Shown: positions 1,428 to 35,744 of the stretch, one piece after another | Layout of the letters: every line of letters begins with the position of its first letter | How positions within the stretch are numbered: position 1 is the first letter of the stretch | Assembly (NCBI GenBank): GCA_030550205.1 | Contig: JAUQPS010000007.1 | Coordinates: 1-36,058 of the forward strand | DNA from: a bacterium | GTDB taxonomy: Bacteria > Hydrothermota > Hydrothermia > LBFQ01 > DSFT01 | Direction: 5' to 3' | DNA length: 36,058 bases | Position numbers and translations under genes: made by a program | Notes under the pieces: generated by a model | The model's input: the letters and a program-made list of their open reading frames with translations, nothing else | Database searches by the model: none | What the model was told of the DNA's origin: nothing

Positions 1428-1434
1428 TACTAAA

Positions 1435-1444
1435 AAATTTTAAA
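1435..1444 (-). promoter_or_regulatory. Leaderless-type promoter element for the otsAB remnant
   Basis: Read on the minus strand, CTTTAAAATTT ends 7 bases before the ATG at 1427. No Shine-Dalgarno sequence fits in between. No clear -35 hexamer is visible. Confidence 0.5.
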
Positions 1445-1463
1445 GTTATAACTTTATATCTAC

Positions 1464-1494
1464 TTGACTTTTTACTTTAAGTCCCTTAAAATTT
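1464..1494 (+). promoter_or_regulatory. Promoter with -35 and -10, leaderless start for the YeaH-SpoVR-PolX operon
   Basis: TTGACT (1464-1469), a 17-bp spacer and TAAAAT (1487-1492) inside CTTAAAATTT form a good sigma-70-type promoter. The ATG at 1503 lies 10 bases after the -10 hexamer, so a transcription start 6-10 bases downstream leaves almost no leader. This is the best-formed example of the recurrent element in the window. Confidence 0.65.
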
Positions 1495-1502
1495 AAAATA
1501 GC

Positions 1503-2552
1503 ATGAACACAAAATGGAAATATCTTAGAAGGTTGTTAAAAGAAAAGCCTAATGTTTCACTTGATAAAACTACAAAAATTCCAAGATTAGTATTACCAAG
1601 ACCATTATATATTTGGGAATTTGATCTTGGAATTACAAAAGGAACATCACCTGGAAGTGAAGATGAGGGAGCGGTTGGAAGAGATGAAATTGTTAAGTAT
1701 TTCCTTTCTGATTTTCAAATTCCTATAATTATTGAAGAGACAAGCTTTGAATTTGATATTAGAAAAGAAGGAAAATCAAAAATTGGAAGAATGAGCCAAC
1801 TTGATATTGAAAGAACATTAAAACAAAAGATGAAAAGATTAGCTATTGAAGGGAATTTAGAACCATCCTCTCTATTTGAAGAACCATTTATTGATGAAGA
1901 TTTAATTTTTAATAGATTTTCAATAAAGGAAACCCTTAGTAAAAAATGCTTAGTAATTCTTGGAATTGATGTTTCTGGATCAATTAGTGATATTGAAAGA
2001 GTTATTGCAAAATCCTTAGTAATAGGTCTTATTCAATTCTTTGGAACAAATTTTGAAACTACTGAATTTTATGGTGTATCCCATGAAGTATCTGCAAAGG
2101 TTTTTGGACCATTAAAAATCCCAAAATCAGAAAATCCATTATATATTCTTGATAGTGAAGATGCTAATCCTATTAGGGAATTTGCAAAAATTCAAGGTGG
2201 TGGAGGAACATCATTATATGATTTTTCAATAAAAGTAAGGAATATCGCAAACAAATATAAAAATTATAGTAGATATTTATTTTATGCAGGTGATTTTTCT
2301 GTATTTTCAAATGATTTAGAAGTTTTTGAAAAAACCTTATTTAGAGGTGATCCATTTCATTTCTATGGCATAATTGTATATGATAGCGAGAGTGCATTTA
2401 ATACATTTTCCTATATTCCACACAATAGCTCAATTTTGTTTATGGGAAGAGAAATAGCAATTTCTAATAATGTTGATACTGTAAATGTTTTACATTGGAT
2501 ATTTAAACATCTTGGAAAGATAGGGAGATTTAACTATGCCCAAAATAGATAA
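1503..2552 (+). CDS. YeaH/YhbH family (DUF444) von Willebrand A-domain protein
   Basis: This 349-residue protein resembles YeaH of enterobacteria and YhbH of Bacillus. These are accessory proteins of the PrkA (YeaG) serine kinase/AAA stress system; their exact biochemical role is unknown. A charged N-terminal region (about 1-145) with SPGSEDEG is followed by a vWA domain. That domain has the metal-binding MIDAS motif DVSGS at residues 156-160 and GGGGTS at 232-237. It is shorter than the usual 400-430 residues. The ATG at 1503 follows the leaderless promoter directly. The gene overlaps the SpoVR gene by 17 bases, the standard partnership, but no prkA precedes it here: the upstream neighbour is the divergent otsAB remnant. 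I infer that the kinase is encoded elsewhere or is absent. Confidence 0.8.
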   Translation: MNTKWKYLRRLLKEKPNVSLDKTTKIPRLVLPRPLYIWEFDLGITKGTSPGSEDEGAVGRDEIVKYFLSDFQIPIIIEETSFEFDIRKEGKSKIGRMSQLDIERTLKQKMKRLAIEGNLEPSSLFEEPFIDEDLIFNRFSIKETLSKKCLVILGIDVSGSISDIERVIAKSLVIGLIQFFGTNFETTEFYGVSHEVSAKVFGPLKIPKSENPLYILDSEDANPIREFAKIQGGGGTSLYDFSIKVRNIANKYKNYSRYLFYAGDFSVFSNDLEVFEKTLFRGDPFHFYGIIVYDSESAFNTFSYIPHNSSILFMGREIAISNNVDTVNVLHWIFKHLGKIGRFNYAQNR

Positions 2553-3963
2553 AAAAATTATTGAAGATTTAGAAGCTCTTGTAAAAGCTCATCATTTAGA
2601 TCCATTGCCTGTTGAATGGATTATACTTGATAATGAAGAAATAGCAGATACAATAATGGGTAGAGTGCCCTATGATATTGAATTTTGGGAAGATGGATAT
2701 GCATATTGGCAACAAAGCTTACTTGAAAGGGATTGGACAAAAAACTATGTAATTGGTGTTCTTGAAGTAATATATGATATGGGGGATTATGCTATTGGAT
2801 TTATTAGAAGTGATATGCCAATTGCTTATCAAATAGCAGTTATTTTACATGCATATGCTCATGCAGATTTATTTAAAAATCACACATTAAAAGCTAAATT
2901 CTATAATCCCATCATATCTTATACTTCCTCTGTAAGCAAGTATAGAAACATTTTAAGAAACTATGAAGAAAAATATGGAATAGATTTTGTTGAAAGTGTT
3001 GAAGATATAGCAGAAATTTTAAGTGAAATATCTTCTTCATTCAGGGAAGGAGAAATTCAACCAAGTTCAATATCTTATAAACCAAGAGAAAGATTTGACC
3101 CCGAAAAGAAAACATTTATTATTGAAGAGCCAGAATATCCAAGTGAAGATGAAGGCGATATTTTATATGCATTGATGTCAATACCTTGGATTGCCCAACC
3201 TATTAGAGATATTATTTCAATTTTTAGGCATAGAGCTATGTACTCTTATCCTATTACACTTACAAAATATATTCATGAGGGTTGGGCAACATTTTGGGAA
3301 AAAACATTATATGTAGAAGCGGTAAGATATATAAATGCAAAAGAATTTATAACTTCAAATTTAATTCCAAGATTTCCTTATATTCCAAAAGAGCATTTGG
3401 AGGAATTTGAAAAAGGATATTTAATATATTTAGCAGAGATTGTAGATATATTATATAAAGTTCTTAGCGACCCATATGCCCTTGGTTATTTATTTTTCTT
3501 ATATAAATCAAGAAAGGGAGAAAATATATTTAAGTATTCAAGAAATCTATTAGATTATCAAGTTTTTGAAATGTTTGACTTTGAAATGTTTTTGACACTA
3601 TTAGAAGAAAGTTTGCCATTTAAATTTTATGACCACATTAAAGAAAATGAAAATATAAAAACTCTTATAAAATTTGCTAATATATTCTGGCTTCAAAGAA
3701 TTTATAAAGGTTATGTTCCAAAAGGAGGAATAAGCAAGGACCTATTTACAATAAATCTTTATTCAAGACCAGAATATGAAATTGAATTTGAAAGGGAAAA
3801 TGAGCCCTTCAAAATAGGAGATAACGTATATCTATATATTCATGACCTCTATATATCTTCTAATGCCACTTATGGCTTAAAAGATACAGAAAAGTTCATA
3901 AGCCAAAGAATAAGAAATTTGTTTGGAATAAAAAAGTTTAAGTTTAACTTTGAAAATGAATAA
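2536..3963 (+). CDS. SpoVR/YcgB family protein
   Basis: This 475-residue protein matches the SpoVR (Bacillus cortex formation) and YcgB (enterobacterial) family in length and in motifs. The hallmark stretch HEGWATFW lies at about residues 247-254, and an N-terminal HAYAHADLFKN block also resembles the family. The family's enzymatic activity is not established. It is normally encoded beside YeaH and the PrkA kinase, and in Escherichia coli it belongs to the RpoS-controlled group. Here the gene overlaps the YeaH-like gene. AGGGAG lies 8 bases before its ATG and supports this start. There are no membrane segments or signal peptide, so it should act in the cytoplasm. The presence of this pair in a presumed non-sporulating bacterium agrees with a stress or stationary-phase role rather than sporulation. 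Confidence 0.85.
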   Translation: MPKIDKKIIEDLEALVKAHHLDPLPVEWIILDNEEIADTIMGRVPYDIEFWEDGYAYWQQSLLERDWTKNYVIGVLEVIYDMGDYAIGFIRSDMPIAYQIAVILHAYAHADLFKNHTLKAKFYNPIISYTSSVSKYRNILRNYEEKYGIDFVESVEDIAEILSEISSSFREGEIQPSSISYKPRERFDPEKKTFIIEEPEYPSEDEGDILYALMSIPWIAQPIRDIISIFRHRAMYSYPITLTKYIHEGWATFWEKTLYVEAVRYINAKEFITSNLIPRFPYIPKEHLEEFEKGYLIYLAEIVDILYKVLSDPYALGYLFFLYKSRKGENIFKYSRNLLDYQVFEMFDFEMFLTLLEESLPFKFYDHIKENENIKTLIKFANIFWLQRIYKGYVPKGGISKDLFTINLYSRPEYEIEFERENEPFKIGDNVYLYIHDLYISSNATYGLKDTEKFISQRIRNLFGIKKFKFNFENE

Positions 3964-5686: not shown

Positions 5687-5688
5687 AT

Positions 5689-5946
5689 ATGAAGAAGAAA
5701 AGAAAGAATAAGGGCTATAGGGAATTGGAAGAATTAAAACAACTTTATGAAATAAATATAGAAGCTATAAGAGAATTAAGAAAATTAATAGAGGAAGATA
5801 GAAAAAGAGCTAAGGAAGATAGAAAGAGAGCAGAGGAATATGAAAAGCAAAGAGAAAAGGAACATAGAGAAGCAATGAAAAGATTAACAGAGCTTAAAAA
5901 AATAATTTTTGATGGATTAAAAAATAGAAATTATTCAAAGCTTTAA
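5689..5946 (+). CDS. Short coiled-coil protein, internally deleted copy of the next gene
   Basis: This 85-residue, very charged protein is nearly all predicted coiled coil with EEDRKRA repeats. Its first 45 or so residues match the next protein closely, including a 58-bp stretch identical in DNA (5754-5811 and 6025-6082). Its end, IIFDGLKN followed by NYSKL, looks like IILDGFEN of the next protein joined directly to that protein's C-terminal DYSK, with the nuclease domain in between gone. I infer a tandem duplication followed by an internal deletion. It starts two bases after the polX stop. There is no convincing Shine-Dalgarno site, and only a weak AT-rich element precedes it. Whether it is functional, perhaps as a truncated partner of the full-length copy, cannot be told. 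Confidence 0.6.
   Translation: MKKKRKNKGYRELEELKQLYEINIEAIRELRKLIEEDRKRAKEDRKRAEEYEKQREKEHREAMKRLTELKKIIFDGLKNRNYSKL
5754..5811 (+). repeat. Direct repeat copy 1 (58 bp, perfect)
   Basis: This stretch is identical to 6025-6082, 271 bp downstream, and lies at the same place in the coiled-coil coding region of both paralogues. Perfect identity over 58 bp suggests recent duplication or gene conversion. Confidence 0.9.
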
Positions 5947-5951
5947 AATTA
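5942..5951 (+). promoter_or_regulatory. Leaderless-type promoter element for the coiled-coil nuclease gene
   Basis: CTTTAAAATTA overlaps the stop codon of the preceding short gene and ends 5 bases before the ATG at 5957. One base differs from the common TTTAAAATTT. Confidence 0.45.
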
Positions 5952-5956
5952 TCAAT

Positions 5957-6574
5957 ATGAAGAATAAAAGAAGAAGGAATAAGCGTGATAGGGAATTGGA
6001 AGAGTTGAAGCAACTTTATGAAAAAAATATAGAAGCTATAAGAGAATTAAGAAAATTAATAGAGGAAGATAGAAAAAGAGCTGAAGAAGATAGGAAGAGG
6101 GCAGAAGAAGATAGAAAGAAAATAGAGAATTTAACAAAATCTATAAGTGATTTAAATGGCATATGGAGTGATTATGCTGAAAAGATAATTTTAGATGGAT
6201 TTGAAAATGCAGCAAAAGAATATGGATTAGAAATAATACAATTGATTGAAAGGCAATTGATTAGAAGAGGTGGTGATAATTATGAAATAGATGGATTAGC
6301 AATTGGAAAAGATTTTGTAATAGTAATTGAAACAAAAACAAAATTTAGAAATGAAGATTTTGAGCAATTAGAGAATAATTTAAATAGATTTTTTGAGTTT
6401 TATCCTTTTTATAGAGGTTATAAGCTTTATGGGGCAATAGCGGGGATAAGAATTACTGAAAATATAAGAAATTTAGCAGAGAAGAAAGGATTTTTTGTAA
6501 TAGAGCATAAGGATGGAAAGGATGTAAGAATTTTAAATAGCAAGGATTTTAAACCAAAGGATTATTCAAAATAA
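5957..6574 (+). CDS. Coiled-coil plus PD-(D/E)XK nuclease-like protein (DUF3782-like)
   Basis: This 205-residue protein begins with a Lys/Arg/Glu-rich coiled coil (about 1-65, EEDRKRAEEDRKRA pattern). A compact domain follows with EIDGLAIG (about residue 112), a beta strand, and IVIETK. The spacing Asp-x(n)-Glu-x-Lys is that of the PD-(D/E)XK nuclease fold. Similar coiled-coil plus nuclease-fold proteins, often labelled DUF3782, occur in many copies in thermophilic bacteria and archaea, and their function is not known. The catalytic residues look intact, so nuclease activity is possible but unproven. The gene is the downstream member of a tandem pair and has its own promoter element. Its stop is 4 bases from the convergent FTR1 gene's stop. 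Confidence 0.7.
   Translation: MKNKRRRNKRDRELEELKQLYEKNIEAIRELRKLIEEDRKRAEEDRKRAEEDRKKIENLTKSISDLNGIWSDYAEKIILDGFENAAKEYGLEIIQLIERQLIRRGGDNYEIDGLAIGKDFVIVIETKTKFRNEDFEQLENNLNRFFEFYPFYRGYKLYGAIAGIRITENIRNLAEKKGFFVIEHKDGKDVRILNSKDFKPKDYSK
6025..6082 (+). repeat. Direct repeat copy 2 (58 bp, perfect)
   Basis: Partner of 5754-5811; see that entry. Confidence 0.9.
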
Positions 6575-6578
6575 TTTT

Positions 6579-8600: not shown

Positions 8601-8607
8601 GCCAATT

Positions 8608-9555: not shown

Positions 9556-10381
9556 CTTTTACCCTCCTGCTATAAACTTTAAATACCGCTTGAATTGGAA
9601 ACATCCCAACCTGAAGATTCGCAATAGTAGAATCAAATCTATACATATTCATTATTCCAAGGTATGCTTTTAGATAGGTAGTATCAAAACTTGTTATAAA
9701 TGCAGTGTCCTTTTTAATTGTAGTATCATTACAAAATGGAGTTTGAGGTTTTGTTTGATAGCGATATTTAATTTTTGAAAATACCTTGGAAAATAATTTA
9801 AATGAAGTATCTGGACTTGCTTCAATAACAACTTTCTTAGAGCTATCAATTTTTAAGCTATCAAGATATATCCACAATGTGCAAGAGCCAAGTTGCTGAG
9901 CTGAAAGTCTTAAAGTATCTCCTATATATTTACTTTGAGATTCAATAGGTATCCAGTTATCATTTAATGAAAGAGGTGCTTTGAATACTTTATAACCCAT
10001 ACTTACTTGTGATGTGCTATCCAAAAAATTAACTGTCCTTATTGTATCAATAACAAAAGGATTAACAACATAAAGTGTATCATATATTTTTGATTGGGAT
10101 GTATAGAATGAGTCATAGTATTCAACATTCAAGTTTCCAAATGTATCTTTTATAACCCTTAAAAATGTATCTTGATAAACCATCGTAGTATCAGTAAGAT
10201 TTGGGATTATAAATCTGGAAGTATCAATAGCATAATATTTATGCGTTTTACCTACATCATAGCCCCAATATCTAATTACATCGTAATTTGAGAAGGTGGG
10301 GTTTTGGGGAGATGTTTGGTCAGATTTTTTGGAACAAGCAAGGAAGATAAAAATTATAAAAAATAAAGAAAAATAACGCAT
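9548..10381 (-). CDS. Putative lipoprotein of unknown function
   Basis: This 277-residue protein has a short basic N-terminus, a hydrophobic stretch and the lipobox LACSKK with Cys at residue 16, so it should be exported and lipid-anchored. The mature part is rich in Thr, Ser, Asp and Tyr, with recurring short patterns such as DTxF and YDTLYVV. It is probably all beta. I do not recognise a family. It starts right after a promoter element and is the first gene of a unit with E1 alpha and FTR1. The E1 alpha ribosome site lies within its last codons. Confidence 0.65.
   Translation of the reverse strand: MRYFSLFFIIFIFLACSKKSDQTSPQNPTFSNYDVIRYWGYDVGKTHKYYAIDTSRFIIPNLTDTTMVYQDTFLRVIKDTFGNLNVEYYDSFYTSQSKIYDTLYVVNPFVIDTIRTVNFLDSTSQVSMGYKVFKAPLSLNDNWIPIESQSKYIGDTLRLSAQQLGSCTLWIYLDSLKIDSSKKVVIEASPDTSFKLFSKVFSKIKYRYQTKPQTPFCNDTTIKKDTAFITSFDTTYLKAYLGIMNMYRFDSTIANLQVGMFPIQAVFKVYSRRVKVQ
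9562..9568 (-). promoter_or_regulatory. Shine-Dalgarno site for E1 alpha
   Basis: AGGAGGG on the minus strand, inside the last codons of the lipoprotein gene. It points to a start near 9555-9550, where no standard start codon exists. Confidence 0.6.
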
Positions 10382-10385: not shown

Positions 10386-10395
10386 AAATTTTAAA
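10386..10395 (-). promoter_or_regulatory. Leaderless-type promoter element for the lipoprotein gene
   Basis: GCTTTAAAATTT on the minus strand ends 4 bases before the ATG at 10381, in the 17-base gap after the tldD stop. Confidence 0.5.
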
Positions 10396-10398
10396 GCC

Positions 10399-16841: not shown

Positions 16842-16851
16842 AAATTTTAAA
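16842..16851 (-). promoter_or_regulatory. Leaderless-type promoter element for nuoJ-pheT operon
   Basis: GCTTTAAAATTT on the minus strand ends 7 bases before the nuoJ ATG at 16834. It is divergent from the tRNA-Gly promoter, whose copy of the element lies 16 bp away. Confidence 0.55.
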
Positions 16852-16867
16852 GCATTTCATATTAGGC

Positions 16868-16877
16868 TTTAAAATTT
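16868..16877 (+). promoter_or_regulatory. Promoter element of tRNA-Gly/rplS
   Basis: GCTTTAAAATTT, with TAAAAT at 16870-16875, ends 9 bases before the first base of the mature tRNA. Because a tRNA needs transcription to begin at or just before this base, this copy fixes the element as a -10 region and calibrates the distance for the protein genes. Confidence 0.65.
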
Positions 16878-16886: not shown

Positions 16887-16958
16887 GCGGGCGTAGCTCA
16901 GTGGTAGAGCACCTGCTTGCCATGCAGGGGGTCGCCGGTTCAAATCCGGTCGCCCGCT
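16887..16958 (+). tRNA. tRNA-Gly (anticodon GCC)
   Basis: A full cloverleaf can be drawn: acceptor GCGGGCG/CGCCCGC, D arm GCTC/GAGC with loop AGTGGTA, anticodon stem CCTGC/GCAGG with loop TTGCCAT (anticodon GCC at 16919-16921), variable GGGTC, and T arm GCCGG/CCGGT with loop TTCAAAT. The discriminator base is T, and CCA is not encoded. Only four bases separate it from the rplS ATG. Its GC-rich stems stand out against the AT-rich surroundings, as expected in a thermophile. Confidence 0.98.
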
Positions 16959-16962
16959 CTTT

Positions 16963-20421: not shown

Positions 20422-20451
20422 TTGAAAATTTTAAAACCTACTTTAAAATTT
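20422..20451 (+). promoter_or_regulatory. Promoter of glmU-gatA, leaderless type
   Basis: TTGAAA (20422-20427), a 16-bp spacer, and TAAAAT (20444-20449) in ACTTTAAAATTT. The element ends 6 bases before the ATG at 20458. An in-frame ATG at 20422 falls inside the -35 and is therefore rejected as the start. Confidence 0.6.
20426..20435 (-). promoter_or_regulatory. Leaderless-type promoter element for the TPR gene
   Basis: TTTAAAATTT on the minus strand ends 6 bases before the ATG at 20419. It partly overlaps the -35 region of the divergent glmU promoter. Confidence 0.5.
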
Positions 20452-20457: not shown

Positions 20458-21417
20458 ATGGAAAGATATCCTTTATCTTGTATTATTTTAGCAGGCGGAA
20501 AATCTAAAAGAATGAAATCTAAAAAAAGCAAAGTATTGCATAAATTATGTGGAAAACCTATTATATATTATCCTTTAAAAGCTTGTAAAAGTCTTTTACC
20601 AGATGAGATATATATTGTAATTGGACAAAGTAGTGAAGGAATAAAGGAGATTATAAATGATGATGTAATTTTTGTATATCAAAATGAACCTCTTGGAACA
20701 GGGCATGCGGTAATGCAAGTTGTTCCATACTTAAAAGATAAAGATATGGATGTTTTAATAGTGCCAGCAGATGCTCCATTAATTAGAATTGAGACAATTA
20801 AAGAATTATATAAATTTCATAAAGAAAATGATGCATTAGTAAGTATTTTAACAACTCAAATGCCAGACCCAACAGGATACGGAAGAATAATTAGAAGTAG
20901 TGGAAATAGGGTTTTAATGATTGTAGAAGAAGCGGATGCATTTCCAGAAGAAAAACAGATAAAAGAAGTAAATTCAGGAATTTATATATTTGAAAGCAAT
21001 ATCTTAATTGAAGCATTAAATGAGATTAAACCAGATAACAAACAGGGAGAATATTATTTAACAGATGTAATAGCTATTATTCAAAGGAAATATGGAGGTG
21101 TATATGCTTATAAAATTGAAGATTGGAAGGAGATATTGGGTATAAATACAAGAGAACAATTATCCTTAGCCCATAGTATAATGCAAGAGCGGATAATTAA
21201 AAGACATATGGAGAATGGTGTTAGTATCATTATGCCAAATTTAGTATATATTGAAGATGATGTAATTATTGAACCAGATGTTATAATTTATCCATTTGTT
21301 TCAATTTTAGGCAATAGTTATATTAGTGAAGATTGTGAAATTGGACCCAATGTAATTTTGGAAAATTATAAAACAAAAAAAGGTGAAGTTATAAGAAATG
21401 CATATTTAAAGGGATGA
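20458..21417 (+). CDS. glmU: GlmU-like N-acetylglucosamine-1-phosphate uridylyltransferase, acetyltransferase half truncated
   Basis: This 319-residue protein corresponds to the N-terminal half of GlmU, which makes UDP-GlcNAc for peptidoglycan and LPS. It has the nucleotide-binding loop LAGGKSKRM with a Lys-rich stretch and VLHKLCGKP, then EPLGTGHAV, VPADAPL, DPTGYGRI, EVNSGIY and QGEYYLTD. After the uridylyltransferase domain only three or four left-handed beta-helix turns remain (about residues 258-310) before the stop. Bacterial GlmU is normally about 450 residues and has the GlcN-1-P acetyltransferase site in the missing part. A separate acetyltransferase would be needed if this is the only GlmU. 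The start at ATG 20458 fits the promoter spacing. The stop overlaps the gatA ATG. Confidence 0.85.
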   Translation: MERYPLSCIILAGGKSKRMKSKKSKVLHKLCGKPIIYYPLKACKSLLPDEIYIVIGQSSEGIKEIINDDVIFVYQNEPLGTGHAVMQVVPYLKDKDMDVLIVPADAPLIRIETIKELYKFHKENDALVSILTTQMPDPTGYGRIIRSSGNRVLMIVEEADAFPEEKQIKEVNSGIYIFESNILIEALNEIKPDNKQGEYYLTDVIAIIQRKYGGVYAYKIEDWKEILGINTREQLSLAHSIMQERIIKRHMENGVSIIMPNLVYIEDDVIIEPDVIIYPFVSILGNSYISEDCEIGPNVILENYKTKKGEVIRNAYLKG

Positions 21418-23666: not shown

Positions 23667-25446
23667 AGTTCAATCCTCCTTTCTTGAAAGGTTTAAATAT
23701 CTTATCTCCTGTCTTATAAAATTGAAGGAAAAATTCTACAACTTGCAAACGCATTCCCTGTATGGTTGGATCTACAAAACCCAAAACAAACGCCAAAATA
23801 TGGAAAATTAATGCTATAATAATACCAAAAATTATTGATGGCACCATAGAAAAGAATATATTACCCATTTCTGCTAGAACCGCAGATGCCAACGCAACTG
23901 CTGCTATCCTTGCAAAGCTTAAAATTTGACCTGCGGTTGATACTAACTCAATAGGAGCAATTGGTCCATGTGTAACCAAAACTCCAATTATTCCTATAAT
24001 TATAAGTGCTATAGCAATATATAAAAATAATGGAATTTGAATAATTTTCAAAAACACCAATCCAATTAATATAATTCCTGATATTCCAATCAATCTAAAC
24101 ATTTCATATAATGCAAGATGCTTATCATTAAGTTTAAAATTATTTAAAATTCCAAAAATAATTCCAAGCACTACTTGAACAATTCCAAGAATTATAGAAA
24201 TTCCAATTATTATATCCGCTGAATGTGTTCTATGAATTATTGGTTTTAAAATACCTAATTTATAAAATAATTCACCAAATGCTTCTCCATATAAAAATCC
24301 AAAAAATAATGCCCACATAAGTGCCCAAATATAAATAGTTGTTAAATCTTTAACAATTTCATTCTTTATAAACTTATACCTGAAAAATAAAACAATTACT
24401 AACATTAAAAGAGCATATCCAACATCACCAAGCATCATTCCAAAATATGGTGGGAAAAATAACCAAAGGAAAAATGTTGGGTCAATTGTTCCATACTTTG
24501 GATAGCCAAAGAAATCTAAAACTCTCCTAAATGGCTTTGAAACTTTTGAAGTTTTAAGAAGTGTAGGAACTTTTTCATATTCAAATATGCTTGGTTCTTC
24601 AAATTTTATAAAATAGTAATTTTCATAAGGTTTTAAAGCATTTATAAGTTTATCTTTTTGATCTTTTATTATCCAACCTTTTAAGAAGAATGCATATTGA
24701 GAGAATGTTGCATATTTTCTTAATATATTTAAATCTTCTGCTTTTTCAAGAACAGAAAGCTTAATATCAGAAAACTTTTCAAAAATCTCACTTCTAAATT
24801 TCTTAATTTCATCTTCAATTTCATTTAATTCATTTTTAAGTCTTATAATTTTATTTGAAATTTCTTCATAAGCTTGTTTAAGAGTTAATTTTTCAAATTC
24901 AGAAGGTAATTTAAACTCACTAAAACCTTCCTTATAAATCAATTCTCTTACATCTTCATAAATTAAAATTGCAAATTTTTCACCCCCAAGTTTTACAATT
25001 ATACTATTTGTTATATTTAGTTTTTTAAATTGTTCTAAATCTTTCTTTATAACAATTAAAACAATATTTGGCTCTTTAAAATTATAAATTTTTGAAAGAG
25101 TTGAATAATAATCATTTAGTAAATTGAGCTTAGATAAAATTTCCTCCTTCCTACTTATTAACTTTTTTGATTTATTTAAAATATCTTCAAGCTCTAATAA
25201 GGTTTTTTCATTAATTTCTACAAATTTTTCTCCTACTGGGAAATTTCCTATTAAATGCTCAATATCCGAAATTAACAACCTTGCTTTTTTATATATTTCT
25301 TCATTCTCAATAGTAATATCGGGAGATTTATACTTTTGGGGATATTCTTCAAGATGAGCAATTCCAAGCTCTTTTATAGTATTTAAAATTTCAAAAAATT
25401 TAGATTTATCTCCTACTATTTCAAATTTTAATAATGGCTTAATCAT
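23656..25446 (-). CDS. atpI: V/A-type ATPase subunit I (a-type stator subunit)
   Basis: This 596-residue protein anchors the peripheral stalks and provides the half-channels of the membrane motor. The first 300 residues are soluble and rich in helices. From about residue 315 seven to eight membrane helices follow, with the family patterns FFPPYFGMMLGDVGYALLM and GFLYGEAFGE. Late in the protein LVSTAGQILSFARIAAVALASAVLAEMG includes the essential Arg of the channel. I chose the ATG at 25446 (MIKPLLKF), because it fits the family start and lies 9 bases downstream of a promoter element. A TTG/ATG-type start further upstream would fall inside that element. It heads the I-K-E unit. Confidence 0.92.
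   Translation of the reverse strand: MIKPLLKFEIVGDKSKFFEILNTIKELGIAHLEEYPQKYKSPDITIENEEIYKKARLLISDIEHLIGNFPVGEKFVEINEKTLLELEDILNKSKKLISRKEEILSKLNLLNDYYSTLSKIYNFKEPNIVLIVIKKDLEQFKKLNITNSIIVKLGGEKFAILIYEDVRELIYKEGFSEFKLPSEFEKLTLKQAYEEISNKIIRLKNELNEIEDEIKKFRSEIFEKFSDIKLSVLEKAEDLNILRKYATFSQYAFFLKGWIIKDQKDKLINALKPYENYYFIKFEEPSIFEYEKVPTLLKTSKVSKPFRRVLDFFGYPKYGTIDPTFFLWLFFPPYFGMMLGDVGYALLMLVIVLFFRYKFIKNEIVKDLTTIYIWALMWALFFGFLYGEAFGELFYKLGILKPIIHRTHSADIIIGISIILGIVQVVLGIIFGILNNFKLNDKHLALYEMFRLIGISGIILIGLVFLKIIQIPLFLYIAIALIIIGIIGVLVTHGPIAPIELVSTAGQILSFARIAAVALASAVLAEMGNIFFSMVPSIIFGIIIALIFHILAFVLGFVDPTIQGMRLQVVEFFLQFYKTGDKIFKPFKKGGLNYVS
23675..23681 (-). promoter_or_regulatory. Shine-Dalgarno site of atpK
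   Basis: AAGGAGG on the minus strand, 8 bases before the ATG at 23666. It suits the high expression needed for ring subunits. Confidence 0.75.
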
Positions 25447-25455: not shown

Positions 25456-25465
25456 AAATTTTAAA
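25456..25465 (-). promoter_or_regulatory. Leaderless-type promoter element for atpI-K-E
   Basis: CCTTTAAAATTT on the minus strand ends 9 bases before the ATG at 25446. It is divergent from the GT9 promoter, whose element begins 10 bp away. Confidence 0.5.
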
Positions 25466-25474
25466 GGCAAACGC

Positions 25475-25484
25475 TTTAAAATTT
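25475..25484 (+). promoter_or_regulatory. Leaderless-type promoter element for the GT9 gene
   Basis: GCTTTAAAATTT ends 5 bases before a TTG start codon at 25490. It shows that non-ATG starts are also used in this arrangement. Confidence 0.5.
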
Positions 25485-25489: not shown

Positions 25490-26476
25490 TTGAAAATTTT
25501 AATAAGATTTCCAAACTGGCTTGGAGATTTGGTAATGTCCATTGGCTTTTATAATAAATTAAAAGAAGCTTTTAATACTGCGAAAATATATGCTATTTCA
25601 AAATCAAGTATATCAGAACTTTTAAAATTATTTGGGAACTTTGAAAAAATTTATGAATTTTCAAAGGAGAAATATAATGGAATTTTTGGAATTTATAAAT
25701 TTTCAAGAGAAATAAAGGATAACTATGATATTTATTTTTCTTTACCAAATTCATTTTCAAGTGCTATAATGGGATTTTTCTCAAATTCAAAGGAAAGGAT
25801 TGGTTATAAGAATGAATTTAGAAACTTTTTACTTACAAAATCATATAAAAAACCAAAAAATCTACATAGAGTCCAAGAGTATTGCTATCTTTTAAAAGAT
25901 TATATTTCAAATCCTTTGGAAAATATAAAAGTTCAATTACATATTGAGCCAGAAAATGATATTTTAAGTTTAAAATCAAAATATAAAATTGCAATAAATA
26001 TAAATTCGGAAGCTCAAAGTAGAAGAATGTCTATTCCTAAATGGACAAAAATTATTGAAATGTTATTAAAAGAATTAGATTGTTATATTATTTTAACAGG
26101 AGCAAAAAAGGATGTAAATAGGGTAAATTGGCTTTTTGAGAGTTTAAAAGATAAAAATAGAGTTATAAATTTAGCTGGAAAAACAAATCTAATAGAACTT
26201 TCAAAAGTTATTAAAGCTTGTGATATAATGTTATCTTCTGATTCTGGTCCTGCCCATCTTTCAAATGCCCTTTTGGTTAAAACAATAGTTTTATTTGGTG
26301 CAGGTGATGAAAGAAATACCGCTCCATATAATAAGAATTTCTTAAAAGTTATAAGATTGAACTTAGATTGCTCACCTTGTTTGAAAAATACTTGTAAATT
26401 TAAAGTTCCTATATGTTTGGAGAATTTAGATGAAACATTAATTGTAAATAGTTTAATAAATTGGTTGGAAAAATAA
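25490..26476 (+). CDS. Glycosyltransferase family 9 protein (ADP-heptose:LPS heptosyltransferase-like)
   Basis: This 328-residue protein resembles WaaF/RfaF. The N-terminal KILIRFPNWLGDLVMSIGF has the acceptor-binding Asp13, and NINSEAQSRRMSIPKWTKII, ILTGAKKDVN and DSGPAHLSNALLVKTIVLFG form the nucleotide-sugar domain. The C-terminus keeps the usual Cys pattern, LDCSPCLKNTCKF. Such enzymes add heptose to the LPS inner core on the cytoplasmic side of the inner membrane. Substrate specificity is inferred from the family only. Initiation is at TTG, since no ATG lies near the conserved N-terminus. The next gene, a ferredoxin, has its own promoter. Confidence 0.88.
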   Translation: MKILIRFPNWLGDLVMSIGFYNKLKEAFNTAKIYAISKSSISELLKLFGNFEKIYEFSKEKYNGIFGIYKFSREIKDNYDIYFSLPNSFSSAIMGFFSNSKERIGYKNEFRNFLLTKSYKKPKNLHRVQEYCYLLKDYISNPLENIKVQLHIEPENDILSLKSKYKIAININSEAQSRRMSIPKWTKIIEMLLKELDCYIILTGAKKDVNRVNWLFESLKDKNRVINLAGKTNLIELSKVIKACDIMLSSDSGPAHLSNALLVKTIVLFGAGDERNTAPYNKNFLKVIRLNLDCSPCLKNTCKFKVPICLENLDETLIVNSLINWLEK

Positions 26477-26478
26477 GC

Positions 26479-26488
26479 TTTAAAATTT
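26479..26488 (+). promoter_or_regulatory. Leaderless-type promoter element for the ferredoxin gene
   Basis: GCTTTAAAATTT overlaps the last base of the GT9 stop region and ends 7 bases before the ATG at 26496. Confidence 0.55.
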
Positions 26489-26495: not shown

Positions 26496-26789
26496 ATGGC
26501 ATATGTGATAACACAACCTTGTGTAGGAACCAAAAGTGGTGAATGTGTTCAAGTCTGCCCAGTAGATGCCATTCACCCAAGAAGAGATGAAAACTGGGAT
26601 GAAACAACTCAATTATATATTGACCCGGCAACTTGTATAGAATGCGGAGCATGTGCTTCTGTTTGCCCTGTAAGTGCTATATATCAAGAAAATGATGTTC
26701 CAGAAGAATGGAAAAGCTTTATAGAAAAGAATGCAGATTATTATAAGCTAAGTAAAGAGGAATTTAAGGCTAAGTGGGGTTCATTATAG
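26496..26789 (+). CDS. Thermus-type 7Fe ferredoxin ([3Fe-4S][4Fe-4S])
   Basis: This 97-residue, low-potential electron carrier closely follows the seven-iron ferredoxins of Thermus and mycobacteria. The first cluster motif is CVGTKSGECVQVCP, with Cys at positions 9, 16 and 20 and a longer loop that suits a [3Fe-4S] cluster. The second is CIECGACASVCP, a standard CxxCxxC...CP set for [4Fe-4S]. The tail DVPEEWKSFIEKN is characteristic of this type. The start follows a promoter element without a Shine-Dalgarno site. A hairpin at the stop codon may end the message. A partner enzyme is not evident; the nearby genes do not use ferredoxin as far as I can see. Confidence 0.94.
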   Translation: MAYVITQPCVGTKSGECVQVCPVDAIHPRRDENWDETTQLYIDPATCIECGACASVCPVSAIYQENDVPEEWKSFIEKNADYYKLSKEEFKAKWGSL

Positions 26790-28504: not shown

Positions 28505-28515
28505 TTAAAAAATAC

Positions 28516-28525
28516 CTTAAAATTT
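28516..28525 (+). promoter_or_regulatory. Leaderless-type promoter element for the 28533 gene
   Basis: CTTAAAATTT ends 7 bases before the ATG at 28533, in a 28-base gap after the repeat-protein stop. Confidence 0.5.
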
Positions 28526-28532: not shown

Positions 28533-29177
28533 ATGAAAGAATTTTTTTTAATTTTTTTATTATACTTTCAACAAGAAGATATAAAATTCGTAAAGGGAAA
28601 GGAATTTGCCTCTGTTGAAAAAGAACCCTTAGAAGGATGGTGGGCTCTTGTTGAAAAAGGAGATAGCGGTTATGAAGTTATACCTACAAAATTAACAAGA
28701 AGTAAAAGTTCTATATACTGTGAGCCAGCTGGTGATACTATTAATTTTTACACTTATAAGGCAGAAATTAATAATGCTTATATTCTTTTATATGGATTAA
28801 AACTTCAAAAAGGTTTTATTCAAAGGATAAAAGGGAAAATAGAAAAAACAACTTTAAGCAATGAAAATCTAGAAAAGATAAAATCTATAACTTTTACATA
28901 TGAAGGAAAGGAATATAAAATATGGTTTGAGGGGAATAAATTTGAGGGTGGGAATCTTTTAATTAGGAGAGGTGATAAAATAGATACTATTTTAGATGTG
29001 GCTACATCGCTTGAAGAAGTAAAGGCATTTGATTTGAATAAAGATAAGAGGCTTGATTTTATTATTACATTTAATTCCTTAGGTCTTGGATTTGAGTCAG
29101 ATGTTATATTACTTATCTCAGAAAATGAAAGTTATAAAATTATTCAAAGTCAAAAGGATGGTATTTGCGGAGAATAA
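28533..29177 (+). CDS. Exported hypothetical protein
   Basis: This 214-residue protein has a short hydrophobic N-terminus (MKEFFLIFLLYF), probably a signal peptide. The mature part is mostly predicted beta strand. Near the C-terminus FDLNKDKRLDFIITF looks like a calcium-binding loop of the FG-GAP/VCBS or dockerin-like kind (DxNxDxxxD), which often occurs in surface proteins. I do not recognise the family as a whole. It is the first gene of a short unit with the two membrane proteins that follow. The next gene's ribosome site lies directly after its stop. Confidence 0.55.
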   Translation: MKEFFLIFLLYFQQEDIKFVKGKEFASVEKEPLEGWWALVEKGDSGYEVIPTKLTRSKSSIYCEPAGDTINFYTYKAEINNAYILLYGLKLQKGFIQRIKGKIEKTTLSNENLEKIKSITFTYEGKEYKIWFEGNKFEGGNLLIRRGDKIDTILDVATSLEEVKAFDLNKDKRLDFIITFNSLGLGFESDVILLISENESYKIIQSQKDGICGE

Positions 29178-29183: not shown

Positions 29184-29191
29184 ATGAGATT

Positions 29192-30148: not shown

Positions 30149-30729
30149 ATTTGAAAGAAATTTTAATTCTTATAGGTTTTATTTCTGGAATCGCACTTTT
30201 TATTACTTTCTTTCTTTTACTCCTACTTAGAGAAAAAGAAGAAATACCTGAAATTAATTCTCCAAGAGAGCTTATTATAGTTATTATTATAGGAATAGAA
30301 ATTTTGATATTAAGTTTTTCCATTAGTATGATAGGTATAGGAAATTTATTAGAAGAAATCCAACTTATAAAAAGTATGGAAATTAAAAAAACTGGAATAA
30401 GAACAATGGCAATTATAAAAGAAAATGAAAAAACATATGAATTAGAATTTACAACTTATGATGGAAAAATAATAAAAAAAGAATATAATGAATCCGCTTT
30501 TGGTATTAAACTCTATTTGGGCTTTTCAACTCAAAAACAAATTCCTGTTGTTTATAATGGAAAAAATCCAAAAGAAGTAGTAATAGATGTGTGGTGGATA
30601 AAATATGTTAATTTGCTTCCATGGGTTTTCGTAGTCTCAGGACTTTGTTTTTTTGGAATTTTAATTATTGTAGGTAGTTTAAAGAAATTGATAGAACAGA
30701 ACCAAAAAGAAAAACAGCAATTGCTTTAA
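30145..30729 (+). CDS. DUF3592-like membrane protein
   Basis: This 194-residue protein has membrane helices at about residues 6-28, 44-68 and 152-174. Between the last two lies a soluble beta-rich part with TYELEFTTYDGKIIKKEY, and VVYNGKNPKEVVID just before the last helix. That layout, with a VxYxxxNP motif before the final helix, is typical of DUF3592 proteins, whose function is unknown. The ATG overlaps the stop of the gene before it. Its last codons and stop lie in the first copy of the 29-bp direct repeat (30719-30747), so its natural C-terminus may have been altered by the insertion described there. Confidence 0.6.
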   Translation: MNLKEILILIGFISGIALFITFFLLLLLREKEEIPEINSPRELIIVIIIGIEILILSFSISMIGIGNLLEEIQLIKSMEIKKTGIRTMAIIKENEKTYELEFTTYDGKIIKKEYNESAFGIKLYLGFSTQKQIPVVYNGKNPKEVVIDVWWIKYVNLLPWVFVVSGLCFFGILIIVGSLKKLIEQNQKEKQQLL

Positions 30730-30747
30730 AATTTTAAATGGTTATCA
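30719..30747 (+). repeat. 29-bp direct repeat, left copy
   Basis: It matches 31719-31747 at 28 of 29 positions (T/C difference at 30743). The repeat consists of the promoter element plus the ATG and first three codons (MVI) of the carboxyltransferase gene downstream. The starts of the two copies are exactly 1000 bp apart. Confidence 0.9.
30725..30734 (+). promoter_or_regulatory. Promoter element in the left repeat copy
   Basis: GCTTTAAAATTT overlaps the stop of the DUF3592-like gene and ends 3 bases before ATG 30738. It probably drives the remnant and the methyltransferase. Confidence 0.5.
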
Positions 30748-30962
30748 TGAATACAAAATCAAAACTTTGGATAAAACTTTGTAAGGATGGCGAAATAATA
30801 TGGGAAAAGACATATGGAAGTCCTTTTGATGATTTAGTTTATACAGTTCATCAAACAAGAAACGGTAATTTTATTTTATCCGGCTATAGAACGCCTAACA
30901 GATATGATTATGATGGATGTATTATGAAAATTGATAAAAAGGGAAATGTACTAAAAAGATAG
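30738..30962 (+). CDS. Single-blade beta-propeller remnant
   Basis: This 74-residue reading frame holds one repeat of the delta-60/beta-propeller kind found in large secreted proteins: GEIIWEKTYGSPFDDLVYTV, then GNFILSGYRTP, then CIMKIDKKGNV. Full proteins have many such blades and a signal peptide; this has neither. Its first three residues, MVI, come from the repeated start of the carboxyltransferase gene, so the frame looks like an accidental join of that start to a piece of propeller gene. An internal ATG at 30747 is an alternative start. A functional product is unlikely, though it is probably transcribed. Confidence 0.5.
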   Translation: MVIMNTKSKLWIKLCKDGEIIWEKTYGSPFDDLVYTVHQTRNGNFILSGYRTPNRYDYDGCIMKIDKKGNVLKR

Positions 30963-30972
30963 GGAAATTAAA

Positions 30973-31737
30973 ATGAAAGAGGAAAAAATTGACAAATTTG
31001 CATCTAACTTAAAAGCTGTTTTTGAAGCAAATGATTATTTATACTTCTATAAGGATGTATTGACAGAAGAAAGAACAAATAAGGAAGTTGAATTTCTTAC
31101 AAAAGAACTAGAACTTAATAGTCCGATGAAAATTCTTGATCTTGCTTGTGGATATGGAAGACATGCAAATCGCTTAGCAGAACTCGGGCATAATGTTACA
31201 GGAGTTGATATTAACTCCGATTTTCTTGAAATTGCAAAAAATGAAGCAAAAGAGAAGGGGTTAAGTGTTGAATACATCAGAGAAGACATGCGCAAAATAT
31301 CATTCTATGAGGAATTTGATAGAGTGCTTTTACTTTTTACTTCTTTTGGATATTTTGAAGATAACGAAAACTTCTTAGTTCTTAAAAATGTAGCAAATGC
31401 TCTAAAACCAAATGGATTATTTTGTTTTGATATACTCAACCGTGATACTTTCTTAAAGAATTTTCCACCATACATTGTAGAAGAAAAAGGAAATGATTTA
31501 ATGATAGATAGAATTACTTTTGATAGCACCACGGGAAGGATTTATAATAGAAGAATTTATATTAGAGATGGTAAAAGGAAAGATGCCCCTTTTTTTGTGA
31601 GACTTTACAATCCAACGGAGATAAAAGAATTATTAAAAAGAGTTGGACTTTCAATTCAAAAAATTTATGCTGATTTTGACTCAAAACCCTTTACATCCGA
31701 ATCAAAAAGAATAGTAATAATTGCTTTAAAATTTTAA
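30973..31737 (+). CDS. SAM-dependent methyltransferase (class I)
   Basis: This 254-residue protein has the class I methyltransferase motifs: motif I ILDLACGYGRHANRLAELG (about 52-70), an acidic residue at the end of strand 2 in VTGVDIN, and the later LLFTSFGYFEDNENF and LKPNGLFCFDIL blocks. It has no target-recognition region that would reveal the substrate. TAGGGA lies 9 bases before the ATG. Codon choice is slightly different from its neighbours: three CGN arginine codons and several CTC/GGG/ACG codons appear, where adjacent genes use AGA, TTA and GGA almost only. Together with the flanking direct repeats this suggests acquisition from elsewhere. Its last codons and stop lie in the right repeat copy. 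Confidence 0.85.
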   Translation: MKEEKIDKFASNLKAVFEANDYLYFYKDVLTEERTNKEVEFLTKELELNSPMKILDLACGYGRHANRLAELGHNVTGVDINSDFLEIAKNEAKEKGLSVEYIREDMRKISFYEEFDRVLLLFTSFGYFEDNENFLVLKNVANALKPNGLFCFDILNRDTFLKNFPPYIVEEKGNDLMIDRITFDSTTGRIYNRRIYIRDGKRKDAPFFVRLYNPTEIKELLKRVGLSIQKIYADFDSKPFTSESKRIVIIALKF

Positions 31738-31747
31738 ATGGTCATCA
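31719..31747 (+). repeat. 29-bp direct repeat, right copy
   Basis: Partner of 30719-30747; it contains the presumably original promoter and start of the carboxyltransferase gene and also encodes the last residues (IALKF) of the methyltransferase. Confidence 0.9.
31725..31734 (+). promoter_or_regulatory. Promoter element of the carboxyltransferase gene
   Basis: GCTTTAAAATTT ends 3 bases before the ATG at 31738 and includes the methyltransferase's last codons. Confidence 0.5.
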
Positions 31748-33354: not shown

Positions 33355-33832
33355 TTTTTTTAGATACTACAACTCTTGCAGGCTTTAGCAACTTCCCTTT
33401 ATATAAATAAGCTTTTTCAAATTCTTCTATAATATAATTATCCATTTCTCCTTCCTTTACCATTAAAACTTCACATAATCTTGGGTCAAAAGGTTTTCCT
33501 TTAAGTGAAACTTGTTCTATTCCATTATCATTTAAAAATTTCATAAGTTGCTTATATATCATTTCAATACCTCTCTTTAGTTCTTCATTTCCTTCAAACT
33601 TATTTATATAATCCAAAGCTCTCTCAAAATTATCCACAATAATTATAATCTCTTTGAATAACTTCTCTCTTTCACTTTCTTTTGCTTCATTAATTCTTCT
33701 TTGAACATCCTTTTTATAATTATCATAATCTGCCAAAAGCCTTATATATTCTTCTCTTGATTGCAGCAATTTATTATTTAAAAACTTTACCCGCTTTCTT
33801 ATTTTAAGCCAAATCAAAGGATTATTTAACAT
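33344..33832 (-). CDS. grpE: GrpE, nucleotide exchange factor of DnaK
   Basis: This 162-residue protein has the GrpE architecture: a long N-terminal coiled-coil helix (about 10-65), the conserved VDNFERAL helix, and a C-terminal beta domain with [14 protein letters not shown] and [12 protein letters not shown]. GrpE releases ADP from DnaK and acts as a heat sensor. The N-terminus is shorter than in most bacteria and lacks the acidic disordered tail. It stands without dnaK, dnaJ or hrcA, has its own promoter element, and no CIRCE operator is visible. It lies 10 bases after rfbB. Confidence 0.92.
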
Positions 33833-33837
33833 AGTGA

Positions 33838-33847
33838 AAATTTTAAA
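33838..33847 (-). promoter_or_regulatory. Leaderless-type promoter element for grpE
   Basis: CACTTTAAAATTT on the minus strand overlaps the stop of rfbB and ends 5 bases before the grpE ATG at 33832. Confidence 0.5.
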
Positions 33848-34847
33848 GTGTTTTCTCCTTATAAAATTTAAGAAGATTTTCTACAAATTTATTTACAATT
33901 TCATATTTCTCTTTTAACCAATCTATATTTCTTAAATACCAATCTATGGTTTTCTTCAAGCCTTCATCAAAATTATATTTTGGGGAAAATCCTAAATTTT
34001 TAATTTTATCATAATTTAGAGAATAGCGAAAGTCATGTGAAGGTCTATCTGGAACAAATTGAATAAGCTCATAAGGTTTATTTAAATTATCAAGAATTTT
34101 CTTTACAACTTCCAAATTTTCATATTCTTCATCAGAACCAATATTATAAATCTCTCCAATCTCACCCCTTTGAATAATAATTTCAATTGCTCTTGCAAAA
34201 TCTTCTACAAATAACCAAACTCTTCTTTGCTTACCATTTCCATATATTGGAATTTTCTCATTATTTAAAGCTTTTAAAATTGTTAAAGGAATTAATTTTT
34301 CAGGATATTGAAAAGGTCCATAGTTATTTGTAGGTCTTAAAATAATTACAGGAATACCATATGTTTTATAATATGCTCTTGCTAATAAATCTGCACTTGC
34401 TTTTGAAAATGCATAAGGTGAATTTGGTAATAAGGGACTATTTTCAAAAAATTGTCCTTCTCTAATTTCTCCATATACTTCATCTGTTGAAATATGAATA
34501 AACTTTTTAATTTTTATATATTTGACACTTTCAAGCAAATTAAATGTTCCAATAATATTACATTCTATAAAGTCCTTTGGAAATAAAATACTTCTATCTA
34601 CATGAGTTTGAGATGCAAGATGAACAATATATTCTGGTTTTTTTTCAATTAAAAGCGCTTTTAAATTTTCAAAATTTAATAAATCCAACTTATAAAACTC
34701 AATATCATCTATTACATCTTCAATTCTTTTCATATCACCTGAATAATCCAGCTTATCAACTACAATAACCTTAAAACCTTGTTTTAATAATTGTTTTACA
34801 ACAAAACTTCCCATAAAACCAGCGCCACCGGTTATAAGAACTTTCAT
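33843..34847 (-). CDS. rfbB: dTDP-glucose 4,6-dehydratase
   Basis: This 334-residue short-chain dehydrogenase/reductase-fold enzyme catalyses the second step toward dTDP-rhamnose and related sugars. The NAD-binding loop GGAGFMG is at residues 7-13. STDEVYGE (around 121-127) carries the Thr/Asp/Glu catalytic set, and YAFSK the catalytic Tyr and Lys. LRPTNNYGP and RRVWLFVEDFARAI are family blocks. Final family assignment among nucleotide-sugar dehydratases rests on these. The ATG overlaps the stop of the gene before it (ATGA). RmlA, RmlC and RmlD genes are not nearby. It fits with the GT9 enzyme in making envelope polysaccharide. Confidence 0.9.
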   Translation of the reverse strand: MKVLITGGAGFMGSFVVKQLLKQGFKVIVVDKLDYSGDMKRIEDVIDDIEFYKLDLLNFENLKALLIEKKPEYIVHLASQTHVDRSILFPKDFIECNIIGTFNLLESVKYIKIKKFIHISTDEVYGEIREGQFFENSPLLPNSPYAFSKASADLLARAYYKTYGIPVIILRPTNNYGPFQYPEKLIPLTILKALNNEKIPIYGNGKQRRVWLFVEDFARAIEIIIQRGEIGEIYNIGSDEEYENLEVVKKILDNLNKPYELIQFVPDRPSHDFRYSLNYDKIKNLGFSPKYNFDEGLKKTIDWYLRNIDWLKEKYEIVNKFVENLLKFYKEKTL

Positions 34848-35695
34848 AAGTTATAAATTTTATATGTTGTTCTACTTTTAATAGGAAAATTTATATCCAA
34901 AATATCAGTAAAGATATACAAAGTTTTAAAGTTTTCAAAAATTAAATTCTCCAAAAGTTTTAAAAATCCATAAATTTTTAAGTTTTCATCTTCTAATTCA
35001 TAATGCCATAAATAAGCCTTTGACTTATAAGCAAATACAATAAAATAAAATTCATTATCAATAGTGAATAGTTTTAAAAAGTTATTTGTTTTACAAATTG
35101 AAATTAAATCAGAAACAAAAATTTGTAATTTTTGGGGAAGTAAATACATTTTTGTTTTTATTAAAAGCTCATAAAAATCAAAATTTTCAACACGAACAAA
35201 ATTATAACTCTTTGAATACTTTTTTAAAATTTTAACTAATTCATCTCTTTTCTTTGATTTATAAATCATCTCTTCTAACATCTTTGGAAGCTCTAAATAA
35301 TATATTTTTGAAAATTCTTGCTTTTGGACATTAAATTGCTCAAAAAGAATTTTTACACTTGGACTTTCATCTAAAATTGGAAATAGAACAAAATGTTTAT
35401 CTTTCAAAATCTCACTTATAAATTGCTTTCTAAATCTATTATCTACAATAAAATCTTGATATGGATTAACATTCTCATAAGTAGGAAATCTATAATAATT
35501 TTCATCAATTTGTAATGCACTTATTCCCACTAATTTATTTTCATAAAAATAACCATAAAACTCACATAATTCATCTTTTAAGATATCATATAGTGGAATT
35601 TGAAAATAAGGAGATAATATAAAATCATCATTTGAAAGTTTTTGAAATGTTTCAATGTTTGAATATATTTCTTCAATTGTAATTTTTCTTACCAA
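34844..35695 (-). CDS. FemAB/GNAT-like protein of unknown function
   Basis: This protein of about 283 residues has alternating strands and helices and looks like a double GNAT fold (FemAB or CelD/BioF2-type). The first half has CEFYGYFYENKLVGISALQI, the second YFIVFAYKSKAYLWHYELEDE, and both resemble the central strands of acetyl- or aminoacyltransferases. Proteins of this kind often modify cell-wall peptides or polysaccharides, which would match the following rfbB gene, whose start it overlaps. No catalytic residue can be named. Two TTG codons, 35701 and 35695, could start it. I chose 35695, because it lies 6 bases after the promoter element, whereas 35701 touches it. Confidence 0.55.
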   Translation of the reverse strand: MVRKITIEEIYSNIETFQKLSNDDFILSPYFQIPLYDILKDELCEFYGYFYENKLVGISALQIDENYYRFPTYENVNPYQDFIVDNRFRKQFISEILKDKHFVLFPILDESPSVKILFEQFNVQKQEFSKIYYLELPKMLEEMIYKSKKRDELVKILKKYSKSYNFVRVENFDFYELLIKTKMYLLPQKLQIFVSDLISICKTNNFLKLFTIDNEFYFIVFAYKSKAYLWHYELEDENLKIYGFLKLLENLIFENFKTLYIFTDILDINFPIKSRTTYKIYNL

Positions 35696-35701
35696 GTTCA
35701 A

Positions 35702-35711
35702 AAATTTTAAA
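35702..35711 (-). promoter_or_regulatory. Leaderless-type promoter element for the FemAB-like gene
   Basis: GCTTTAAAATTT on the minus strand ends 6 bases before TTG 35695. It is divergent from the pdxT element 18 bp away. Confidence 0.5.
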
Positions 35712-35729
35712 GCTTTTATTTTTTAAAAC

Positions 35730-35739
35730 TTTAAAATTT
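35730..35739 (+). promoter_or_regulatory. Leaderless-type promoter element for pdxT
   Basis: ACTTTAAAATTT ends 5 bases before the ATG at 35745. Confidence 0.55.
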
Positions 35740-35744
35740 TCAAT

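What the first reader, a model, noticed from the sequence alone, without database searches (positions are those of the whole stretch)
1428..35744. A recurrent CTTTAAAATTT element next to start codons suggests leaderless transcription of first genes
About 16 genes that open transcription units, on both strands, have TTTAAAATTT (a few with one change) ending 3-9 bases before the start codon, leaving no Shine-Dalgarno space. It contains TAAAAT, a good -10 hexamer; upstream of 1503 a TTGACT stands 17 bp away, and upstream of 20458 a TTGAAA 16 bp away. The tRNA-Gly has the same element 9 bases before its 5' end, which sets the distance to the transcription start. Many internal operon genes (rny, atpK, the small pheT-zapA gene, 29192) use GGAGG-type sites instead. 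Leaderless mRNAs fed by a -10 element are known in Deinococcus and Actinobacteria; this element and its frequency here look distinctive.
Basis: partly seen in the sequence, partly recalled or inferred. Interest (0 to 1): 0.72.

Follow-up and report, generated by a model that had tools for sequence, protein, structure and literature searches.

The report
Leaderless promoter box before start codons
In a heat-loving, mostly uncultured group of bacteria (candidate division WOR-3), most genes that begin a transcript carry one near-identical 11-letter promoter box so close to the start codon that the messenger RNA should begin at, or a few letters before, the protein's first codon.

Summary
In the window 16 of 37 protein starts, plus tRNA-Gly, have CTTTAAAATTT (at most 1 mismatch) ending 3-9 nt upstream; circular shifts give a mean of 0.15 and at most 2. 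Genome-wide, CTTTAAAATTT-N3-9-ATG occurs 313 times against 13 for the reversed control, and only 32 times at N13-19, where several gaps hold a Shine-Dalgarno site. The element precedes 30 of 31 first-of-cluster tRNAs and 0 of 13 downstream ones, and also tmRNA and 16S rRNA, so it is a promoter rather than a translation signal. De novo motif search finds it at about 84% of divergent first genes, with almost no Shine-Dalgarno there and no general -35. In sister-genus rRNA promoters TTGACA stands 17 bp from TAAACT, which fixes the register. The host is a WOR-3 relative of Ca. Caldipriscus/Hydrothermae. Leaderless expression from a -10 box next to the ORF is known (Deinococcus, Actinobacteria). 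New are the lineage and the box: near-invariant, with C at -15 instead of TG, plus C at -18 in the Caldipriscus family. No RNA 5'-end data were available.

The parts
1435..1445 (-). Promoter box CTTTAAAATTT, 7 nt before ATG at 1427 (frame-broken trehalose-phosphate synthase-like gene)
1484..1494 (+). Box CCTTAAAATTT (1 mismatch), 8 nt before ATG at 1503; TTGACT 17 bp upstream of TAAAAT
5941..5951 (+). Box CTTTAAAATTA (1 mismatch), 5 nt before ATG at 5957
10386..10396 (-). Box CTTTAAAATTT, 4 nt before ATG at 10381
16842..16852 (-). Box CTTTAAAATTT, 7 nt before ATG at 16834 (NADH dehydrogenase subunit J homologue)
16867..16877 (+). Box CTTTAAAATTT, 9 nt before tRNA-Gly 16887-16959; divergent with the box at 16842-16852
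20426..20436 (-). Box TTTTAAAATTT (T at -15), 6 nt before ATG at 20419
20441..20451 (+). Box CTTTAAAATTT, 6 nt before ATG at 20458 (GlmU-like); TTGAAA 16 bp upstream of TAAAAT
25456..25466 (-). Box CTTTAAAATTT, 9 nt before ATG at 25446 (V-type ATP synthase subunit I)
25474..25484 (+). Box CTTTAAAATTT, 5 nt before TTG at 25490; back to back with the box at 25456-25466
26478..26488 (+). Box CTTTAAAATTT, 7 nt before ATG at 26496
28515..28525 (+). Box CCTTAAAATTT (1 mismatch), 7 nt before ATG at 28533
30724..30734 (+). Box CTTTAAAATTT, 3 nt before ATG at 30738
31724..31734 (+). Box CTTTAAAATTT, 3 nt before ATG at 31738
33838..33848 (-). Box CTTTAAAATTT, 5 nt before ATG at 33832
35702..35712 (-). 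Box CTTTAAAATTT, 6 nt before the likely TTG start at 35695
35729..35739 (+). Box CTTTAAAATTT, 5 nt before ATG at 35745 (gene runs off the window end)

Best explanation
CTTTAAAATTT is the core promoter read by the housekeeping (RpoD-type) RNA polymerase: a -10 hexamer TAAAAT (T-12 to T-7) with a fixed upstream C at -15, TT at -14/-13 and TT at -6/-5, usually working without a -35 element. RNA starts about 6-9 nt after the hexamer. For most first genes that is at the start codon or a few nt before it, so the mRNA is leaderless or nearly so and is translated without a Shine-Dalgarno site. Where the start codon lies further away, the same promoter can give a short leader holding a Shine-Dalgarno site; internal operon genes often use Shine-Dalgarno sites. 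The spelling is lineage-specific: GCTTTAAAATTT (window genome), ACTTTAAAATTT (sister species), CTTTAAAATTT (sister genus), CAACCTTANAAT (Caldipriscus family). Shown: the sequence, its position, its occurrence before mRNA, tRNA, tmRNA and rRNA genes, the absence of a general -35, and the SD split between first and internal genes. Inferred: the exact transcription start, which sigma factor reads it, and leaderless translation.
For: Positional peak 313 against 13 and 32 at 13-19 nt. 30 of 31 first tRNAs and 0 of 13 downstream tRNAs. tmRNA and rRNA genes. De novo EM: 84% and 95% of divergent first genes, 6.2 and 5.9 log units per sequence against about 1.0 shuffled. T-7 to start mostly 6-11 nt. 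SD-like at 0-3% of first and about 20% of internal genes, with a normal anti-SD. Register from TTGACA-17-TAAACT in G033/G034 rRNA promoters. The reverse box upstream occurs only at divergent genes: 30 of 40 and 35 of 49 against 0 of 35 and 0 of 26 tandem.
Against: No RNA 5' ends have been measured. About 14% of box-led genes start with TTG or GTG, which is unusual for leaderless translation, though start calls may be wrong. Roughly 20% of divergent first genes have no recognisable box next to the start. The assembly is 86% complete with 6.7% contamination.
Confidence: 0.9

Rival explanations
1. The box is a translation-initiation signal, an A/T-rich replacement for Shine-Dalgarno lying in the 5' UTR of longer mRNAs.
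For: It lies 3-9 nt before start codons, where a Shine-Dalgarno site would be, and box-led genes lack one.
Against: It stands before tRNA, tmRNA and rRNA genes. Some genes with the box 13-19 nt upstream have AGGAGG between box and ATG. Internal genes use Shine-Dalgarno sites.
Confidence: 0.03
2. The box is an operator of a global regulator that overlaps ordinary promoters.
For: It is 11-12 bp long and far stricter than usual -10 elements; divergent genes carry inverted pairs.
Against: It is at most first genes, nearly all first tRNAs and the rRNA and tmRNA genes. Inverted pairs have no fixed spacing and occur only at divergent genes. It contains a good -10 hexamer in register with TTGACA in rRNA promoters.
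Confidence: 0.04
3. The box is a -10 element read by an alternative sigma factor rather than by RpoD.
For: G000 and G032 also encode smaller sigma-70-like proteins.
Against: rRNA and tRNA genes use it; RpoD is the sigma factor found intact with regions 2 and 4 in each genome of the order examined, and the register matches a -10 with a canonical -35 in rRNA promoters.
Confidence: 0.04
4. The enrichment is an artefact of A/T-rich composition or of a dispersed repeat.
For: The box is mostly A/T and the genome has 27-28% GC.
Against: Reversed-pattern controls give 13 against 313 and 1 against 239. It is also found in G033 at 51% GC. Flanks are not conserved.
Confidence: 0.005

Closest known systems
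-10 motif adjacent to ORFs in Deinococcus-Thermus (PMC12340547)
   Same: A -10 element 6-7 bp before the ORF in about a third of genes, no need for a -35, leaderless mRNA, Shine-Dalgarno sites for other genes.
   Different: There the motif is TANNNT with only three fixed positions. Here about ten positions are nearly fixed, with C at -15 and T at -5/-6. Different phylum.
TA-led leaderless genes in bacteria (PMC3160421)
   Same: TA-like -10 signal about 10-12 bp before the start codon, taken as a sign of leaderless genes; anticorrelated with operon-distal genes.
   Different: That survey covers RefSeq genomes of 2010, well before these metagenome-assembled WOR-3 genomes; its signals are TAnnnT or TAtaaT without an upstream C, as described in the passages read.
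Extended -10 promoter (T-15 G-14) of RpoD/SigA
   Same: Conserved base at -15 next to the -10 hexamer; lets the polymerase do without a -35 (PMC4593229).
   Different: C instead of T at -15 and T or C instead of G at -14; in the Caldipriscus family a further C at -18.
Leaderless transcriptome of Mycobacterium tuberculosis (PMC3898074)
   Same: A -10 element placed so that transcription starts at the start codon (general knowledge; only the start of the abstract was seen here).
   Different: Different phylum; here the box is far stricter and also drives tRNA genes in the same geometry.

Membership tests
Bacterial leaderless promoter (-10 next to ORF) | -10 hexamer 6-11 nt before the start codon | tested here: met
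   Modes 7 and 9 nt (G000), 7 (G032), 6 (G033), 8 (G036) between T-7 and the start codon
Bacterial leaderless promoter (-10 next to ORF) | No Shine-Dalgarno at these genes, but present at internal genes | tested here: met
   0-3% against 19-20%; anti-SD intact
Bacterial leaderless promoter (-10 next to ORF) | RNA 5' end at the start codon | not testable with these tools
   No transcriptome for these genomes; needs 5'-end mapping
RpoD/SigA promoter, -10 element | T-12, A-11 and T-7 fixed | tested here: met
   EM without a fixed pattern: 97, 98 and 96% in G000; in register with TTGACA-17 in rRNA promoters of G033/G034
RpoD/SigA promoter, -35 element | TTGACA at 16-18 bp | tested here: not met
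   No clear enrichment at mRNA promoters; present only in some rRNA promoters
Classical extended -10 (TGn) | T-15 G-14 | tested here: not met
   C-15 at 91%, 88%, 74% and 100%; -14 is T or C (pattern-anchored, but EM gives C82, C90, C74, C91)

The most novel reading that the evidence does not exclude
The Caldipriscus/Hydrothermae lineage has a housekeeping RNA polymerase whose promoters are defined by a C-15-extended -10 box (with an added C-18 in one family) in place of TG and of the -35. The box is read by a sigma subunit with lineage-specific changes at DNA-reading positions (Q446H in the two families of the order; T440M/I in the window's genus; V454I more widely), and it drives a largely leaderless set of first genes.
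Probability: 0.5. Interest if true: 0.7.

Novelty: new variant of a known kind. Interest (0 to 1): 0.55.

Why it matters
It extends leaderless, -35-free gene expression to another thermophilic phylum, with an unusually strict box that changes spelling between families. That makes co-evolution of sigma factor and promoter directly testable, because a WOR-3 isolate (strain sy37, NBRC 116057, genome AP038914, PMC12285271) now exists. It also allows better start-codon and transcription-unit annotation of metagenome-assembled genomes of this group.

Tried and rejected
Naming the host with PheT in genome contigs found nothing; a 16S pattern worked. A -35 was sought with TTGACA, TTGAAA and TTGACT at 15-19 bp: no clear excess over slid positions; only an A-rich tendency near -33 in G000 that G032 does not share. 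A dimeric operator was tested through divergent-pair spacing: no fixed spacing. V454I as the cause of C-15: rejected as sole cause, because G027 keeps V454 yet shows C at -15 in about half of its promoters. T440M/I as cause: confined to the window's genus while C-15 is wider; T440I is known to suppress T-to-C at -12 (PMC2613000), but T-12 is invariant here. The first promoter control (reversed core, at most 1 mismatch) was uninformative because it overlaps the core. G022 and G030 gave no convincing first-gene motif with the data taken.

Full report
WHAT WAS CHECKED. The window is contig C181 of a 1.89-Mb, 210-contig assembly. I located every core site in it, took 20 further own-genome loci (255 kb with the window), 12 loci of a same-genus genome (G032, 239 kb), and samples of a sister genus (G033), a sister family (G036) and other families. 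Genes were called with a simple hexamer-based script, and first genes were defined as divergent ones.

THE OBSERVATION. 16 of 37 protein starts in the window have CTTTAAAATTT (at most 1 mismatch) ending 3-9 nt upstream; circular shifts give 0.15 on average and never more than 2. The tRNA-Gly has it 9 nt upstream. Genome-wide, CTTTAAAATTT followed by ATG after 3-9 nt occurs 313 times (reversed control 13) in the own genome and 219 times (7) in G032; at 13-19 nt it occurs only 32 and 33 times. GCTTTAAAATTT occurs 239 times against 1 reversed, and 127 against 4 in G032; in the other 145 phylum genomes searched the counts are at most 13.

IT IS A PROMOTER. Independently of start codons, 30 of 31 first-of-cluster tRNAs in G000 and G032 have the box (at most 2 mismatches) 5-24 nt upstream, mostly 5-15, and 0 of 13 tRNAs that follow another tRNA or lie in the rRNA operon have it (my tally). 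tmRNA genes of G000, G032, G033 and G034 and the 16S rRNA genes of G000 and G032 have it too. In G033 and G034 the rRNA promoter reads TTGACA, 17 bp, TAAACT with C at -15, and in G036 TTGACA, 17 bp, CATAAT (spacers counted by hand). This fixes TAAAAT as the -10 hexamer.

IT IS USUALLY -35-FREE AND PROBABLY LEADERLESS. Anchored profiles show no clear TTGACA signal at mRNA promoters in G000, G032, G033 or G036. Divergent genes are packed so tightly (starts mostly 18-60 bp apart with one box each) that a -35 of one would often overlap the -10 of the other. Between T-7 and the start codon there are mostly 6-11 nt (modes 7 and 9 in G000, 7 in G032, 6 in G033, 8 in G036), which places a standard start point at the start codon or a few bases before it. 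First genes have almost no Shine-Dalgarno (0-3%) against 19-20% of internal genes, although the 16S 3' end is normal. When the box is 13-19 nt from ATG, several gaps contain AGGAGG: the same promoter with a short leader.

LINEAGE AND VARIATION. 16S sequences place the genome in candidate division WOR-3 (Caldifarciminota in the NCBI taxonomy), in the same order as Ca. Caldipriscus T1.2, whose 16S is identical to that of G035. EM motifs without a fixed pattern: G000 G-CTTTAAAATTT-TAA, 84% of first genes; G032 A-CTTTAAAATTT, 95%; G033 (51% GC) CTTTAAAATTT, 91%; G036 TTCAACCTTANAATAC, 84%. More distant families give weaker TANAAT-like signals with a lesser C at -15 (G027 49%, G018 59%, G053 40%), with about half or fewer of the sites next to the start. 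So C at -15 looks like a class-wide tendency that became near-invariant in this order.

THE SIGMA FACTOR. The primary RpoD aligns with E. coli RpoD. In E. coli numbering, residue 440 is M (G000) or I (G032) but T in the sister genus and most others; 446 is H in both families of the order but Q, N or T elsewhere; 454 is I in most of the class and V in families f6 and f7. T440I in E. coli suppresses T-to-C at -12 (PMC2613000); V454 is proposed to touch T-15 and was 100% conserved in 1002 primary sigmas (PMC4593229). These are leads, not tests: one clade gives no statistical power, and V454I alone does not track C-15.

COMPARISON. A -10 element next to the ORF, in about a third of genes and without -35, is known and experimentally supported in Deinococcus-Thermus (PMC12340547), and TA-led leaderless genes occur in many bacteria (PMC3160421). 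This case works like those. It differs in the near-invariant 11-bp box and in the C-15 (and C-18) extension. I found no earlier report for this phylum, within an open-access library only.

LIMITS. No RNA data; script-made gene calls; partial genome samples; completeness 86% and contamination 6.7% for the own assembly. The profiles are anchored on the pattern and so overstate conservation; one search is the unbiased version.

Noticed in passing
G000 C105:3008-3430 (L239), G032 C22:7721-8152 (L141), G033 C168 (L238), G034 C114 (L237): HARP (PF08745, protein-only RNase P) is found in all four genomes of the window's family, in none of which RNase P RNA class A (RF00010) was found; G036 has the RNA and no HARP. 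This suggests that the family replaced the RNA enzyme by the protein one; other RNase P RNA classes were not searched.
   Followed up: partly
L239 (minus strand) and L141 (minus strand), HARP gene: In both G000 and G032 (16S 90% identical) the HARP gene lies in two frames that meet at a run of about nine A; G033 and G034 have it in one frame. Such runs are almost absent from called genes. This could be programmed transcriptional slippage or frameshifting rather than an assembly error.
   Followed up: partly
WOR-3 RpoD, region 3.0 (L033-L051, L210-L235): Residue 454, reported as 100% V in 1002 primary sigmas (PMC4593229), is I, V, A or S in different WOR-3 families, and residue 458 (E) is D in several of them. 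Whether all of these are the primary sigma was not proved.
   Followed up: partly
window 1-1427 (-): A trehalose-phosphate synthase/phosphatase-like gene is split over several frames although it has an intact promoter box at 1435-1445; it may be a decaying gene or the result of assembly errors.
   Followed up: no
G036 promoters (L075-L082, L113-L122): First genes have a box TTCAACCTTANAATAC with C at both -15 and -18 and T at about -20, a spelling clearly different from the window's family.
   Followed up: partly
window 1503-3963 (+): The two genes resemble YhbH and SpoVR at low scores, sporulation-named families in a lineage not known to sporulate.
   Followed up: no
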